64,000 nucleotides of DNA, from contig CADABS010000007.1 of NCBI GenBank assembly GCA_902786245.1, positions 1 through 64,000 on the forward strand, read 5' to 3'. This DNA comes from an uncultured Erysipelotrichaceae bacterium (GTDB lineage Bacteria; Bacillota_I; Bacilli_A; Erysipelotrichales; Erysipelotrichaceae). Below the pieces are notes generated by a model. The model was not told where the DNA came from and did no database searches. It saw only the letters and a program-made list of their open reading frames with translations. The position numbers were made by a program, and so were the translations under genes. Within the stretch, counting starts at the first letter, position 1. The number at the start of each line of letters is the position of its first letter. Shown here piece by piece: positions 41,718-49,085 of the stretch.

Positions 41718-43073
41718 ATGATCAGAAAAGCAATTATGGTACCCCACCCGCCGATTGCCCTGGCAGAAGTCGGACGCGGCGAAGAAAAGAAAATTCAGCA
41801 GACGCTGGACGCATACGGAGAAGCCTGTTCATTCATTGCGGATGATCATCCCGATACCGTCATCATCCTTTCTCCGCATGCGCTGATGTACAGAGATTAT
41901 TTCAATATTTCCGGCGGAAAGGATGCCTATGGCGATATGGCCCGGTTTCATGCCGGCAGGGTCGCCTTCCGGAAAGAATATGATACGGAGTTTGTTTCCT
42001 GTCTGACGCAGATGCTGGAAGAAGAAGGATTCCCGGGCGGTACGCAGTACGACCGCGATCCTTTACTGGATCACGGCACGATGGTTCCGCTGTATTTCCT
42101 GACACCGTATCTGCCGGACTGCCGGATCGTCCGGATCGGACTCAGCGGTCTGCCGCTTTCCATGCATTACCGCCTGGGCATGTACATTCAGAAAACCGCA
42201 GAAACGCTGGGCCGCCATATCGCGGTCATCGCCAGCGGCGATCTTGCCCACTGCCAGAAAGAAGACGGTCCCTACGGCTATAAAGCAGAAGGCCCTGCCT
42301 ATGATGAGGCCATCATGAAGACGATGGGAACGGCCGCTTTCAACGAACTCTTTGATTACCCCGCTTCCTTCCTGCATGCATCCATGGAATGCGGACACCG
42401 GGCATTCGTCATTCTGGCCGGTATTCTTGACGGTCTGTCTGTCACACCGCATGTATTGAGCCATGAAGCGACCTTCGGTGTCGGCTACGGCATTGTCACT
42501 TTCGATATCGGTTCTGCCGATAATGAAAGACATTTCCTCGATCAGCACAGAGCTGTGCATTCATCCGATCCGCTGGTGCAGCTGGCTGTGCAGGCAGCCG
42601 CATACAGCGTCCGTACCGGAAAAACGATGCCCGTACCTTCTGCACTGCCTGCATCTCTGCAGAAACCGGCCGGATGCTTTGTATCGGTCCACGAAGACGG
42701 CGATCTGCGCGGATGCATCGGAACGATCTTCCCTGTCCATGATACCCTGGCAGAGGAAATCGTAAACAACGCCCGCAGCGCCTGTCTGCGCGATCCCCGC
42801 TTTTCCGCAATCACCGAAGATGAACTGCCGTTTCTGGAGATCAGTGTCGATGTCATGGGAGAGCCGGAAGTCATCCATGACCGCTCGCAGCTGGATGTGC
42901 ACCGCTATGGCATCATCTGTACATCGAAGAACCGCCGGGGACTGCTTCTGCCGGATCTTGAAGGCGTCGATACCGTAGAACAGCAGATTGCCATTGCCTG
43001 TTCCAAAGGCGGCTTCGACCCGGATGAAGAAGACCTTGTCATCGAGCGGTTTGAGGCGGTGCGCCATGTCTGA
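41718..43073 (+). CDS. AmmeMemoRadiSam protein: MEMO1-like (AmrB) and AMMECR1-like (AmrA) fusion
   Basis: 451 residues. Residues 1-260 form a MEMO1/LigB-type fold: MVPHPPIALAEVGRG, IILSPHA, LLDHGTMVPLYFL and VIASGDLAHCQ hold the His/Asp residues that would bind metal. Residues 280-451 are an AMMECR1 domain with the conserved GCFVSVHEDGDLRGCIGTI and ARSACLRDPRF segments. It overlaps the radical SAM gene by 8 nt. Together they make up the three-part AmmeMemoRadiSam system. The biochemical product is not established to my knowledge; the group may modify an aromatic or cofactor-like substrate. Confidence 0.9.
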   Translation: MIRKAIMVPHPPIALAEVGRGEEKKIQQTLDAYGEACSFIADDHPDTVIILSPHALMYRDYFNISGGKDAYGDMARFHAGRVAFRKEYDTEFVSCLTQMLEEEGFPGGTQYDRDPLLDHGTMVPLYFLTPYLPDCRIVRIGLSGLPLSMHYRLGMYIQKTAETLGRHIAVIASGDLAHCQKEDGPYGYKAEGPAYDEAIMKTMGTAAFNELFDYPASFLHASMECGHRAFVILAGILDGLSVTPHVLSHEATFGVGYGIVTFDIGSADNERHFLDQHRAVHSSDPLVQLAVQAAAYSVRTGKTMPVPSALPASLQKPAGCFVSVHEDGDLRGCIGTIFPVHDTLAEEIVNNARSACLRDPRFSAITEDELPFLEISVDVMGEPEVIHDRSQLDVHRYGIICTSKNRRGLLLPDLEGVDTVEQQIAIACSKGGFDPDEEDLVIERFEAVRHV

Positions 43074-43887
43074 AATACGCTGTGAGATCTGTCCCCACCG
43101 CTGTCTGCTCAAAGAAGGACAGACCGGACGGTGCCGGGCCAGAAGAAATATCGGCGCAGAGAATACATGCATCAATTACGGAAAACTGACATCCCTGGCA
43201 ATCGATCCGGTTGAAAAGAAGCCGCTGTACGGATTCTTTCCGGGTTCCTGTATTCTTTCCGCCGGCAGCTTCGGATGCAATCTTGCCTGTCCGTTCTGTC
43301 AGAACCATGAAATCTCGATGCAGAATGAAAACAGCGTACCGACCGCTGATGTATCCCCGCAGCGTCTGCTTGATATCTGCCTGCAGCACCCGGAAAGCAT
43401 CGGCGTTGCCTTTACCTACAACGAGCCCTGCATCAGCTATGAATACATCATCGATACCGCTGTTCTGCTCAGAAAACATGATCTGAAGACCGTACTGGTC
43501 ACCAATGGCTGTTTTGAAATCCCGGTTCTGGAGAAGCTGATGCCGTATACCGATGCCATGAATATCGACCTCAAAGGCGGTGAAGATTTCTACCGTGAAC
43601 TGCATGGCGACTATGAAACGGTCCGCAGAGCAATTGAATACTGCGTACCGAGGACCCATGTGGAAGTGACGACGCTGATCATTCCCGGACGCAATGATAC
43701 CGAAGCATTCATGCGGGAACAGGCAGCCTGGCTGGCGGATCTGGATCCTGAGATGTATCTGCATATCAGCCGCTATTTTCCCCGCTACAGATATACTCTG
43801 CCACCGACGGAAACCGAAACTCTGAAGAAACTGAAAAACATTGCCTCGGAATACCTGAAACACGTATACCTCGGCAATGTCCGGTAA
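43066..43887 (+). CDS. amrS: AmmeMemoRadiSam system radical SAM enzyme
   Basis: 273 residues. An N-terminal cysteine cluster (CEICPHRCLLKEGQTGRC) resembles that of pyruvate-formate-lyase-activating relatives. The radical SAM motif CNLACPFC lies near residue 72, followed by TYNEPCISYEY, a MNIDLKGG strand and HISRYFPRY. The ATG at 43066 lies inside the 3' end of the preceding fusion gene; an apparent N-terminal extension would be out of context. It converges with the LRR gene only 3 nt away, with no terminator between. Confidence 0.9.
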   Translation: MSEIRCEICPHRCLLKEGQTGRCRARRNIGAENTCINYGKLTSLAIDPVEKKPLYGFFPGSCILSAGSFGCNLACPFCQNHEISMQNENSVPTADVSPQRLLDICLQHPESIGVAFTYNEPCISYEYIIDTAVLLRKHDLKTVLVTNGCFEIPVLEKLMPYTDAMNIDLKGGEDFYRELHGDYETVRRAIEYCVPRTHVEVTTLIIPGRNDTEAFMREQAAWLADLDPEMYLHISRYFPRYRYTLPPTETETLKKLKNIASEYLKHVYLGNVR

Positions 43888-45181: not shown

Positions 45182-45213
45182 CAGAAAAGGCTTCCGGGCT
45201 GTCCCGAAAGCCT
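45182..45213 (-). terminator. Terminator of the HPr-lactate dehydrogenase gene
   Basis: Stem AGGCTTTCGGG / CCCGGAAGCCT with one mismatch and a 4-nt loop, then TTTTCTGA on the minus strand. Confidence 0.8.
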
Positions 45214-45228
45214 CATGTCAACCGGTTT

Positions 45229-46527
45229 TTATTTGCACTCGGCTATGCCAAGATCAACGCCTTCGTTGAAGTTGCGCGCATTTTCAAGTGTCGTAGCCGC
45301 AATTGCCTGCAGAGCTTCTCTGGTGAAGAATGCCTGATGCGATGTCAGAACGACGTTCGGGAACATCAGCAGTCTGGCTGTAATATCATTGACCAGATAG
45401 TCATCGGAGTGGTCTGTATAGACGTTTGCGTCTTCGCCTTCATATACGTCAAGACCTACTGCGTGGAACTTACCCTGCTTCAGTGCATCGATCAGCGCTT
45501 CTGTATCGATCAGTCCGCCGCGGGCTGTATTGACCAGCATGGCTGTATCTTTCATCTTTGCGATGGCATCCGCATCGATCATATGATATGTTCCGCCGGG
45601 ACCCATGATCAGCGGTGCATGCAGAGAAATCAGATCGGATCTTGCATACAGTTCATCTTTCTCAACATATGTCAGGAGTCCTTCATCAACCAGTTTCTGG
45701 TTCGGATATGCATCCCAGCCGATGACCGTCATGCCGAAGCCCTTGCAGATATTCGCCATGCACTGGCCGATTCTGCCGGTACCGATGATACCTGCGACCT
45801 TATTGTGCAGGTCGACACCGAGCAGTCCGCTCAGCGCGAAGTTGTTGTCCTTGACCTTATTGACCGCTTTGTGCATACGGCGGTTGCAGGTCATGACCAG
45901 TGTCATTGCATGTTCAGCGACTGCATACGGAGAGTATGCCGGAACTCTTGCAACACGGATGCCGCATTCACGGGCAGCCTGCAGGTCGACATTGTTGAAT
46001 CCTGCGCAGCGCAGCAGAATCAGTCTGACGCCGCAGTCATGCAGTTTTTCAACAGCACTTCTCGGGCATTCATCATTGACGAAAATACATACTGCATCAA
46101 ATCCTTTTGCAAGACCTGCTGTTTCAGGTGTCAGTCTTGTATTGAAATACTTGATATCGCAGTTATATGTTCCTTCACCGATATCTCTTGCCAGTTCGCT
46201 GAAGAAAATTCTGTCATAGTCCTTCGCACCGAAGAATGCAATTTTCAGGACGGATACTTCATCGTATTTCTTGAGTCTGTGATCGAGTTCTTCTTTGATG
46301 ATTGCCAGTGCGCCGTCTTCGTCGCCGCCTTCAGCGCTGATTTCAAGAACAGAACCCTGCTGTGCATCAAGGGCAAGGATCTGCAGAACGTTTGTGCCGT
46401 TGGCAGTTTTGTCACCGCATTTGATAACGATCTGGGAAGGCAGTGCTACGCAGGCCTGTGCGACAAAAGCCGCCGGACGGGCATGCATACCGAGAGGACT
46501 GGTAATTTCATACGTAATCTTTTTCAT
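45229..46527 (-). CDS. HPr phosphocarrier domain fused to D-lactate dehydrogenase
   Basis: 432 residues from the ATG at 46527 (GGAGG 11 nt upstream). Residues 1-88 align without gaps to PTS HPr: LGMHARPAA places the phosphorylatable His at exactly 15. The regulatory position 46, Ser in Firmicute HPr, is Asn. After about five residues, LKIAFFGAKDYDR begins a complete 2-hydroxyacid dehydrogenase of the D-LDH class: GIIGTGRIGQ (NAD loop), NTARGG (Arg), GLDVYEGE (Glu) and LTSHQAF (His). It reduces pyruvate to D-lactate in the cytosol. The HPr part could couple this to PTS phosphorylation state. It has its own strong promoter. Confidence 0.93.
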   Translation of the reverse strand: MKKITYEITSPLGMHARPAAFVAQACVALPSQIVIKCGDKTANGTNVLQILALDAQQGSVLEISAEGGDEDGALAIIKEELDHRLKKYDEVSVLKIAFFGAKDYDRIFFSELARDIGEGTYNCDIKYFNTRLTPETAGLAKGFDAVCIFVNDECPRSAVEKLHDCGVRLILLRCAGFNNVDLQAARECGIRVARVPAYSPYAVAEHAMTLVMTCNRRMHKAVNKVKDNNFALSGLLGVDLHNKVAGIIGTGRIGQCMANICKGFGMTVIGWDAYPNQKLVDEGLLTYVEKDELYARSDLISLHAPLIMGPGGTYHMIDADAIAKMKDTAMLVNTARGGLIDTEALIDALKQGKFHAVGLDVYEGEDANVYTDHSDDYLVNDITARLLMFPNVVLTSHQAFFTREALQAIAATTLENARNFNEGVDLGIAECK

Positions 46528-46581: not shown

Positions 46582-46610
46582 ATCATACTACACCCGAACT
46601 CAAATGACAA
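46582..46610 (-). promoter_or_regulatory. Promoter of the HPr-lactate dehydrogenase gene
   Basis: The minus strand TTGTCA, a 17-nt spacer and TATGAT give 5/6 matches in each box, about 55 nt before the start codon. No clear cre box is seen nearby. Confidence 0.7.
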
Positions 46611-46645: not shown

Positions 46646-47410
46646 TCATATGATTTCTTTCAGAGGTGAAAGAATGATTCCTTCTTCATTGCAGGCATGC
46701 CTGATTGCCTGGATAAATGCCAGAGCGCTTTCTGAGTCCCCGTGTACACAGACAGAATCCGCCCTGACGGAAATCTCTCTGCCGGTAATGGCAGTCACTT
46801 TCCCTTCCAAGATCATCCGGATGGCCCTGTTCAGTGCTTCTTTCGGATCTTTGATCATCGCTCCGGGCTTTGTTCTTGCGACCAGGGTTCCGTCTTCTTC
46901 ATAGGCTCTGTCCGCAAAGACTTCCGCGGCAGCTTTCATATGCATTCTGACAGCCGTTCTGTACAGTTCTCCGCTTTCCTGGGCCAGGATGATCAGACCC
47001 GGATCATAGGCCTGCACCGCCTGGCAGATGGCTTCTGCAATTGTCCGGTCCTTTGCGGCCATGTTGTACATGGCGCCATGCGGCTTGACATGGGCAAGCC
47101 GAAGTCCTTCTGCCCGCACAAATGCATCGAGGGCACCGATCTGATACAGAACGCATGCCTGCAGTTCCTCTGCCGATAAAACCATGTTTCTGCGGCCGAA
47201 TCCCTGCAGATCGTCAAAGCCGGGATGGGCACCGATGGATACACCGGCGTCCTTTGCCAGACGGACGGTCTTTTTCATGACGAGCGGATCACCGGCATGG
47301 AATCCGCAGGCGGCGTTGATGGATGTGACAAGCGGAACGACCTGTCCGTCATTGCCCAGTGTGTAGCGGCCGAAGCTCTCGCCCAGATCGCTGTTGAGAT
47401 CGATTTTCAT
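46646..47410 (-). CDS. pxpA: 5-oxoprolinase subunit PxpA
   Basis: A 254-residue LamB/YcsF-family protein. The N-terminus IDLNSDLGESFGRYTLGND, NAACGFHAGDP, VSIGAHPGFDDLQGFGRR and VKPHGAMYN are diagnostic. PxpA acts with PxpB and PxpC to cleave 5-oxoproline (pyroglutamate) to glutamate using ATP. It is the last gene of the operon, 14 nt after pxpC. Confidence 0.95.
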   Translation of the reverse strand: MKIDLNSDLGESFGRYTLGNDGQVVPLVTSINAACGFHAGDPLVMKKTVRLAKDAGVSIGAHPGFDDLQGFGRRNMVLSAEELQACVLYQIGALDAFVRAEGLRLAHVKPHGAMYNMAAKDRTIAEAICQAVQAYDPGLIILAQESGELYRTAVRMHMKAAAEVFADRAYEEDGTLVARTKPGAMIKDPKEALNRAIRMILEGKVTAITGREISVRADSVCVHGDSESALAFIQAIRHACNEEGIILSPLKEII

Positions 47411-47424
47411 AGGAAGGTCCTCCT

Positions 47425-48393
47425 TTATTTCCTGAAGATTCCGAGAATGCCTTTCCGGCTGAATTCTCTTTCTGCAGCAAGCAGGTATGCATTCTGTTTC
47501 CGCAGTGCTTCCTGTGCTTCTTCCAGAGATACTTTCCGGAAGCGGATCCTGTCACCCGGCATCAGCTGCGAAGCCTTGGAAAAGTCCGCGCTGATGACTG
47601 CCGCAATCACTGCATATCCGCCCGTCGTCGCATGGTTTTTCATCATCATGATCGGTGCATCCGGGGTTACCTGGATCGCTCCGTCGCACAATCCGGAGGA
47701 AATGATGTCATTTCCCTGTACGGTCTCGATTGCAGGTCCTTCCAGACGGAATCCCATCTTGTCCGACTGCAGAGAAACCGTGAATGCATTTTCATAGAAT
47801 GTTCTGCGTCCTTTTTCACTGAAGCTTTCCGCATTCGGTCCTTCTATGACGCGCAGAACCGTAAAGCCTGGATCCGGTGTTCCCGGCGGAAAGAACCGTC
47901 TGTCCATATTCGGAAGCGTACTGCGGACTTCCGTCAGTTCAATCACCGTACCGGCCTGCAGTTTCCCGCCGCGGTTGGGCCCCAGTCCGCTTTTGATATC
48001 CGTTGCCCAGCTGCCATAGACTGCCGGCAGAACAAAATCCGCAGAAAACGCAATGACACAGGAACGTCCTCTCGGCGCATTTGCGATCTTCAGAAGATCG
48101 GCTGCTTTCGCCCGGTATGTACGGTTTGTTTCGATCGGCTGTTCATTGAGAAAGACCCTGAAGCTGCCGCCGCATACCGCAAAGCATACCGCACCGGAGA
48201 ATTCGATTTCGGGTCCGGTTCCGATGCATTCAATGACCGGATGGTTCACCGGATTTCCGACCAGGATATTCGCCATTTTCATTGCCAGAGGCGACATGGC
48301 GCCGCTGAGCGGAATGCCCTGTCCCTGATAGCCGTATCTGCCTGCGTCCTGCACTGTTGTCAGCGCACCGCTTTCCCGTATCGTTATATGCAT
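47425..48393 (-). CDS. pxpC: 5-oxoprolinase subunit PxpC (KipA-like)
   Basis: A 322-residue protein of the biotin-dependent carboxyltransferase-like (AHS2) family. Typical blocks are ALTTVQDAGRYGYQGQGIPLSGAM at the N-terminus, the central LGPNRGGKLQAG, then FRLEGPAI and ISSGLCDGAIQVTPDAPIMMMKNHATTGGYAVIA. It forms the PxpBC complex of 5-oxoprolinase. The start overlaps pxpB by 10 nt. Confidence 0.95.
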   Translation of the reverse strand: MHITIRESGALTTVQDAGRYGYQGQGIPLSGAMSPLAMKMANILVGNPVNHPVIECIGTGPEIEFSGAVCFAVCGGSFRVFLNEQPIETNRTYRAKAADLLKIANAPRGRSCVIAFSADFVLPAVYGSWATDIKSGLGPNRGGKLQAGTVIELTEVRSTLPNMDRRFFPPGTPDPGFTVLRVIEGPNAESFSEKGRRTFYENAFTVSLQSDKMGFRLEGPAIETVQGNDIISSGLCDGAIQVTPDAPIMMMKNHATTGGYAVIAAVISADFSKASQLMPGDRIRFRKVSLEEAQEALRKQNAYLLAAEREFSRKGILGIFRK

Positions 48394-49085
48394 AATGCGC
48401 CTCCGCTTTTCTCAATGCTTTCGAATTCAGCCTGGCTGACGGCATGGAAATGAACGGTGTCGCCGCTTCTCAGCAATACCGGTTCGGACCGGGAAGGATC
48501 ATACAGACGGACCGGAGTCAGGCCGATGATATGCCAGCCGCCCGGCGATGTCAGCGGATAGATGCCTGTCTGCTTGCCGCCGATGCCGACGGAACCTGCC
48601 CGGATGGCAGTGCGCGGCCGGGTCCTGCGCGGAGTATGGATACGGCTGTCGAGATTGCCCAGATACGGAAATCCCGGCAGAAAGCCGATCATATAGACCG
48701 GATAGGCTCCGGCGGTATGGATGCCGATCACTTCTTCTTCGCTGAGTCCGGCATGCATGGCTACGTGCTTCAGATCCTCCGGATACGGACTTCCGTAGAG
48801 AACCGGGATATGCACTTCCCGGCCGGCAGCGGATTCTGTCTGTACGGGAAGTTCCTGCAGGTCCCTGATCCTTTTTTGGAGGCGTTCAAAAGAAATCCTG
48901 TCAGGATCATAAATGATCATCAGCGTTGCATAGGCAGGAATCCTGTCGAGAACGCCGGGAATATGCGCTTCATCGATCCGGCGGCTGATTTCCGTCACTT
49001 CGGCAAGGATCCGCGGTTCGATCTTCTGTTCAAACTGGATGAGCAGCGCTGCGTCGCCGCATGGTTTTATCACGAATTCATACAT
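48384..49085 (-). CDS. pxpB: 5-oxoprolinase subunit PxpB (KipI-like)
   Basis: A 233-residue AHS1-family protein: PCGDAALLIQFEQ at the N-terminus, HIPVLYGSPYPEDL, YMIGFLPGFPYLGNLD and the C-terminal SPGGWHIIGLTPVRLYDP. It complexes with PxpC; the KipI form in Bacillus can inhibit the KinA kinase, but nothing here indicates that role. It is the first gene of the pxpBCA operon. No strong ribosome-binding site is visible before its ATG. Confidence 0.94.
   Translation of the reverse strand: MYEFVIKPCGDAALLIQFEQKIEPRILAEVTEISRRIDEAHIPGVLDRIPAYATLMIIYDPDRISFERLQKRIRDLQELPVQTESAAGREVHIPVLYGSPYPEDLKHVAMHAGLSEEEVIGIHTAGAYPVYMIGFLPGFPYLGNLDSRIHTPRRTRPRTAIRAGSVGIGGKQTGIYPLTSPGGWHIIGLTPVRLYDPSRSEPVLLRSGDTVHFHAVSQAEFESIEKSGGALCI

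What the first reader, a model, noticed from the sequence alone, without database searches (positions are those of the whole stretch)
45229..46527. HPr phosphocarrier fused in frame to D-lactate dehydrogenase
Residues 1-88 align colinearly with HPr, His15 included, and a full D-LDH follows after a 5-residue linker. Ser46, the HPr-kinase site used for catabolite control, is Asn. The fusion keeps PEP-dependent His phosphorylation potential but loses ATP-dependent control. This would let PTS flux (the PEP/pyruvate ratio) act directly on fermentative lactate formation. I know of no described enzyme of this architecture.
Basis: partly seen in the sequence, partly recalled or inferred. Interest (0 to 1): 0.87.

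Follow-up and report, generated by a model that had tools for sequence, protein, structure and literature searches.

The report
Lactate dehydrogenase wearing a sugar-PTS domain
A family of gut and rumen bacteria makes its D-lactate-forming enzyme with a built-in copy of HPr, the small protein that carries phosphate for sugar uptake, suggesting that sugar import directly controls or physically feeds lactate production; the fusion is real, conserved in dozens of species and, as far as I could find, undescribed.

Summary
The gene at 46527-45229 (-) encodes 432 aa: a canonical HPr domain (1-84, His15 present, Ser46 replaced by Asn) joined by a short linker to a complete LdhA-type D-lactate dehydrogenase (94-432). 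It is not an assembly artefact: the same in-frame fusion occurs as complete copies in 72 further species genomes, including the named cultured species Kandleria vitulina, [Eubacterium] cellulosolvens and Floccifex porci, and in 79 of 316 genomes of the order. Both domains separately recover one fused clade, so there was probably one fusion event, after which the gene spread across Erysipelotrichales, Lachnospiraceae and Oscillospiraceae without conserved neighbours. The HPr half evolves quickly (54% mean identity), yet Gly13, His15, Ala16, Arg17 and Pro18 never vary (73/73); Asn46 is kept in 67/73. The host has Enzyme I, HPr kinase and a classical stand-alone HPr (His15, Ser46), but no L-LDH and no other LdhA-type D-LDH was found. 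One relative has the gene beside EI in an EIICBA-EI-fusion array. Best reading: an EI-phosphorylatable HPr module couples lactate formation to PTS flux while escaping HPr kinase. Phosphorylation, its sign and any effect on activity are inferred, not shown; docking on EI remains a serious rival.

The parts
45229..46527 (-). HPr::D-LDH fusion gene, 432 aa plus stop
46276..46527 (-). HPr domain (residues 1-84), His15 at 46485-46483, Asn46 at 46392-46390
   Evidence: Pfam PF00381; AF2 shows the HPr order of strands and helices with block pLDDT 90-96; alignment to stand-alone HPr
46249..46275 (-). variable linker (residues 85-93)
   Evidence: poorly conserved stretch; pLDDT about 80
45232..46248 (-). 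LdhA-type D-lactate dehydrogenase (residues 94-432); catalytic Arg336, Glu365, His397 and NAD motif GTGRIG 249-254
   Evidence: catalytic residue assignment from family knowledge of L. bulgaricus D-LDH (R235, E264, H296)
46582..46610 (-). promoter-like site TTGTCA-17-TATGAT; a TGTAGTATGATTTT-like core recurs upstream of the gene in same-genus relatives
   Evidence: recurrence by eye in the sequences
45187..45214 (-). intrinsic-terminator-like hairpin (12-pair stem, z -3.4) after the stop codon, followed by TTTTC overlap/tail

Best explanation
The gene encodes a fermentative D-lactate dehydrogenase with an N-terminal HPr module. Enzyme I~P phosphorylates His15 of the module when the PEP/pyruvate ratio is high; rapid PTS sugar import drains the phosphate. 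The module's phosphorylation state then changes the activity of the attached (by homology oligomeric) dehydrogenase, most plausibly so that the unphosphorylated state during rapid sugar uptake favours pyruvate reduction. Asn46 keeps the module out of the HPr kinase/CcpA branch that acts on the cell's separate, classical HPr. Shown: the fusion, its conservation, the invariance of the His15 loop, the co-occurring PTS, the absence of another recognisable fermentative LDH in the own genome. Inferred: phosphorylation by EI, coupling to activity, and its sign.
For: 73 complete fusions with G13, H15, A16, R17, P18 invariant while the HPr domain averages only 54% pairwise identity; 5 of 6 loop positions fall among the 8 invariant ones, p = 8e-6; HARP motif in 91 of 92 distinct N-termini, the exception probably the copy cut at its contig end. 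By contrast 6 of 31 stand-alone HPr-like proteins sampled in carriers have lost His15 but keep Ser46. Purifying selection on the HPr half in the genus, pN/pS median 0.17, max 0.34. Hydrophobic helix-2 patch retained as V47, L48, L51. EI over cut-off in 29 of 31 carriers and in the own genome. EIICBA-EI-fusion array in L029. Sole LdhA-type enzyme in the own genome, next best 35% identity, and no L-LDH there. Precedent: unphosphorylated E. coli HPr acts on MtlR and Rsd by direct contact, and HPr regulates glycogen phosphorylase (PMC5320558).
Against: No biochemical evidence. The PTS-adjacent arrangement was seen in only one locus. Neighbours are otherwise unconserved. The sequence cannot tell regulation from EI docking or from phosphocarrier function. 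The AF2 result gave no coordinates or inter-domain error with which to judge whether the HPr domain touches the LDH (pTM 0.77).
Confidence: 0.58

Rival explanations
1. Docking/channelling: the HPr module tethers the dehydrogenase to Enzyme I, which releases pyruvate on each PEP turnover, so that pyruvate is reduced locally. Phosphorylation happens as part of docking but activity itself is not switched.
For: EI makes pyruvate, the LDH substrate (established knowledge); invariant EI-facing loop and hydrophobic patch; EI next to the fusion in L029; sole recognisable fermentative LDH in the own genome.
Against: HPr-EI binding is transient and pyruvate diffuses fast, so the gain from tethering may be small (own knowledge); strict His conservation is more than docking needs.
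Confidence: 0.2
2. The HPr module is an extra phosphocarrier to certain EIIs, with Asn46 making it resistant to HPr kinase; the LDH is a passive partner.
For: Complete HPr active site and loss of Ser46; EIICBA neighbour in L029.
Against: Every carrier sampled also has at least one stand-alone HPr-like gene; a phosphocarrier gains nothing obvious from permanent fusion to an LDH, yet no unfused member was found inside the fused clade.
Confidence: 0.14
3. The HPr domain is a structural or oligomerisation relic with no phosphorylation-linked role.
For: The HPr half evolves faster than the LDH half (54% vs 79% identity).
Against: Invariant His15 loop in 73/73; purifying selection.
Confidence: 0.05
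4. Assembly or sequencing error joining two genes.
For: The window comes from a 102-contig draft genome.
Against: Same junction in 73 assemblies including isolates; 79 of 316 genomes of the order.
Confidence: 0.005

Closest known systems
LdhA-type D-lactate dehydrogenases (F. nucleatum 5z21, P. aeruginosa 5z20, E. coli 5z1z/3wx0, Salmonella 4cuj)
   Same: 43-47% identity over the whole enzyme, same fold and catalytic residues
   Different: None of these carries an HPr domain; the fused enzymes form their own clade with 99% SH-aLRT
Stand-alone HPr (PtsH) of Bacillota
   Same: Colinear, His15 loop identical, same secondary structure order
   Different: Asn46 instead of Ser46; fused-specific A20, A23, Q24, C26, V27, A42, G44, Q49, A55; permanently attached to an enzyme
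Multidomain PTS proteins with an HPr module (FruB/FPr, MTP, DhaM; from own knowledge)
   Same: HPr module in a larger polypeptide
   Different: There the partners are PTS phosphotransfer domains; here the partner is a fermentation enzyme outside the PTS
HPr acting in trans on enzymes and regulators (glycogen phosphorylase, MtlR, Rsd in E. coli; PMC5320558)
   Same: Control of another protein by HPr is the mechanism proposed
   Different: Here the interaction would be intramolecular and fixed
Crh of Bacillus (own knowledge)
   Same: HPr paralogue specialised by changing one of the two phosphorylation sites
   Different: Crh keeps Ser46 and loses His15; the fused domain is the reverse

Membership tests
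LdhA-type D-lactate dehydrogenase | 2-Hacid_dh and 2-Hacid_dh_C domains over cut-off | tested here: met
LdhA-type D-lactate dehydrogenase | catalytic Arg/Glu/His and NAD GxGxxG conserved | tested here: met
   R336, E365, H397, G249, G251 invariant over 60 sequences, G254 nearly so
LdhA-type D-lactate dehydrogenase | closest solved relatives and structural matches are D-LDHs | tested here: met
LdhA-type D-lactate dehydrogenase | NADH-dependent reduction of pyruvate to D-lactate | not testable with these tools
   needs enzyme assay
NCBIfam D-LDH/VanH equivalogs | curated score cut-off reached | tested here: not met
   best VanH 212 bits against cut-off 540; PRK12480 185 against 579
HPr (PTS-HPr) | PF00381 and TIGR01003 over cut-off | tested here: met
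   69 bits vs 23; 59.4 vs 47.9
HPr (PTS-HPr) | His15 with Arg17 in the phosphorylation loop | tested here: met
   73/73
HPr (PTS-HPr) | Ser46 for HPr kinase (Gram-positive HPr only) | tested here: not met
   Asn in the window and in 67/73; Ser in 2
HPr (PTS-HPr) | phosphorylated by EI and passes phosphate to EIIA | not testable with these tools
   EI present in the genome, nothing more
HPr (PTS-HPr) | HPr fold | tested here: met
   secondary structure order and block pLDDT 90-96 in the AF2 model; the PDB fold search listed LDH matches only

The most novel reading that the evidence does not exclude
A PTS phosphorelay acts directly, through a built-in HPr domain, on the sole fermentative lactate dehydrogenase of many gut and rumen bacteria, so that sugar-uptake flux sets lactate output within one polypeptide: a covalently PTS-coupled dehydrogenase.
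Probability: 0.55. Interest if true: 0.82.

Novelty: new variant of a known kind. Interest (0 to 1): 0.72.

Why it matters
Lactate formation by rumen and gut Erysipelotrichales bears on low-methane rumen types; PMC5069950 ties Sharpea/Kandleria-type lactate producers and PTS genes to low methane yield and names the isolate NK3D112 among PTS-rich species. NK3D112 (L018) and Kandleria vitulina (L072) both carry this fusion. If the HPr domain works, a single histidine would link sugar import to end-product choice, and one mutant (H15A) would test a direct flux-sensing mechanism in a fermentation enzyme.

Tried and rejected
Assembly artefact: rejected by conservation. Operon-based function: neighbours of the fusion are not conserved (gene calls there are crude, longest-ORF-first, and mis-call antisense ORFs in G+C-rich loci, e.g. 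they hid EI in L029); only L029 has PTS neighbours when searched with one EI and one EIICBA, so other PTS genes could be missed. cre and Rex operator scans upstream gave nothing convincing (cre in 1 of 69, Rex best 3 mismatches in 2). No fused relative among the best plasmid and phage matches. A first comparison of fused and stand-alone HPr was misaligned and stopped with an error; one search replaces it. Ten literature searches found no description of the architecture; the library is open-access PMC only, so subscription papers and InterPro architecture lists were not checked. A Crh-like origin was rejected because His15 is kept. The lactate isomer made by K. vitulina was not confirmed in the papers read.

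Full report
What is there. The minus-strand ORF 46527-45229 encodes 432 residues with a full PTS-HPr domain followed by a full D-isomer-specific 2-hydroxyacid dehydrogenase, all three Pfam models well over their cut-offs. The reading frame is continuous through the junction and no start codon exists in codons 79-130. The gene is probably transcribed alone: a promoter-like site lies about 55 nt upstream (about two such sites are expected by chance in the region scanned) and a strong hairpin with a T tail follows the stop. Flanking genes look like a PxpA/C/B set upstream and an esterase downstream (named by eye).

It is not an artefact. A scan of about 85,000 species genomes returned 75 loci that carry the fusion or a contig-truncated part of it, at 60-94% identity; with the window's own gene, 73 complete copies could be aligned. 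They include Kandleria vitulina DSM 20405, [Eubacterium] cellulosolvens LD2006, Floccifex porci and the isolate NK3D112. In the window's order 79 of 316 genomes (14 of 80 genera) have it at E <= 1e-140, and 11 of 299 in the family of the E. cellulosolvens genome. The scan started from the window's own peptides, so more distant or independent fusions could be missed.

One fusion event, then spread. On the LDH half, 91 fused rows form one clade (SH-aLRT 99) against 21 unfused relatives, one change. On the HPr half, 72 fused rows again form one clade (97) against 30 stand-alone HPr-like rows, though with only 88 columns. Inside the fused clade Erysipelotrichales, Lachnospiraceae, Oscillospiraceae and a Selenomonadaceae MAG are intermixed, which suggests horizontal transfer of the intact fusion; MAG names are not fully reliable, but K. 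vitulina and E. cellulosolvens are isolates. Neighbouring genes are not conserved. The best plasmid and phage matches cover the LDH part only.

Is the HPr domain alive? It diverges more than the LDH half (54% vs 79% mean pairwise identity), yet G13, H15, A16, R17, P18, G67, D69, E70 never vary in 73 sequences; five of the six loop positions 13-18 are among these eight (p = 8e-6). Within the genus pN/pS has median 0.17 and maximum 0.34. The HPr kinase serine is Asn in 67, Ser in 2, Asp in 2, Lys or Gly in one each. The hydrophobic contact patch keeps its character (V47, L48, L51), while A20, Q24, C26, G44, Q49 and A55 are peculiar to the fused form and may mark contacts with the LDH; this is inference. 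AF2 on 60 sequences predicts the HPr order of strands and helices with block pLDDT 90-96.

Is the LDH alive? The closest solved relatives are the D-LDHs of F. nucleatum, P. aeruginosa, E. coli and Salmonella. R336, E365 and H397, which correspond to R235, E264 and H296 of L. bulgaricus D-LDH (family knowledge; spacing agrees), are invariant across fused and unfused sequences. No NCBIfam D-LDH equivalog reaches its cut-off, so the D-lactate assignment rests on clade and residues.

Genome setting. The own genome (96.5% complete) has one stand-alone HPr with H15 and S46, EI, HPr kinase, no L-LDH at E <= 1e-3 and no second LdhA-type enzyme (next match 35%). Of 21 carrier genomes checked, 15 lack any L-LDH match. 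EI is over cut-off in 29 of 31 carriers; the two exceptions are MAG genomes that may be incomplete. In L029 the gene order is EIICBA, EI, fusion, all on one strand, with gaps of about 100 and 175 bases.

How it most likely works. The strict His15 loop in a fast-evolving domain, in genomes with EI, argues for phosphorylation by EI. The natural consequence is coupling of lactate formation to PTS flux, by a switch in activity (preferred), by docking to the pyruvate-producing EI, or both. The sign is a guess from physiology: unphosphorylated during fast sugar uptake, when lactate is needed as a sink. HPr precedents in trans exist (PMC5320558). None of this was tested biochemically.

Novelty. No paper in the open-access library describes the architecture; subscription journals and domain-architecture databases were out of reach. 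I rate it a new variant of a known kind: two known domains in an apparently undescribed, conserved and biologically suggestive combination.

Noticed in passing
46646-49085 (-): Three adjacent ORFs resembling 5-oxoprolinase subunits PxpA (LamB/YcsF), PxpC and PxpB upstream of the fusion on the same strand; named by eye, no family search run.
   Followed up: no
41718-43887 (+): AmmeMemoRadiSam-type set: a MEMO1/AMMECR1-like ORF followed by a radical-SAM-like ORF; named by eye only.
   Followed up: no
L107, L109, L111, L112, L113, L121: In six carrier genomes the best-scoring stand-alone HPr-like gene has Glu or Asp at position 15 but keeps Ser46, the mirror image of the fused domain (Crh-like); Asp/Glu might mimic phospho-His.
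   Followed up: partly
L029:5984-8001: Both gaps of the EIICBA-EI-fusion array hold short repeats (such as CCCTAATCCCT and GGGAACAGG), probably a repeat family of this MAG.
   Followed up: no
carrier genomes: Many Lachnospiraceae-type carriers have several further HPr-like genes, including short ones matching only model positions 19-78, without the His15 loop.
   Followed up: no
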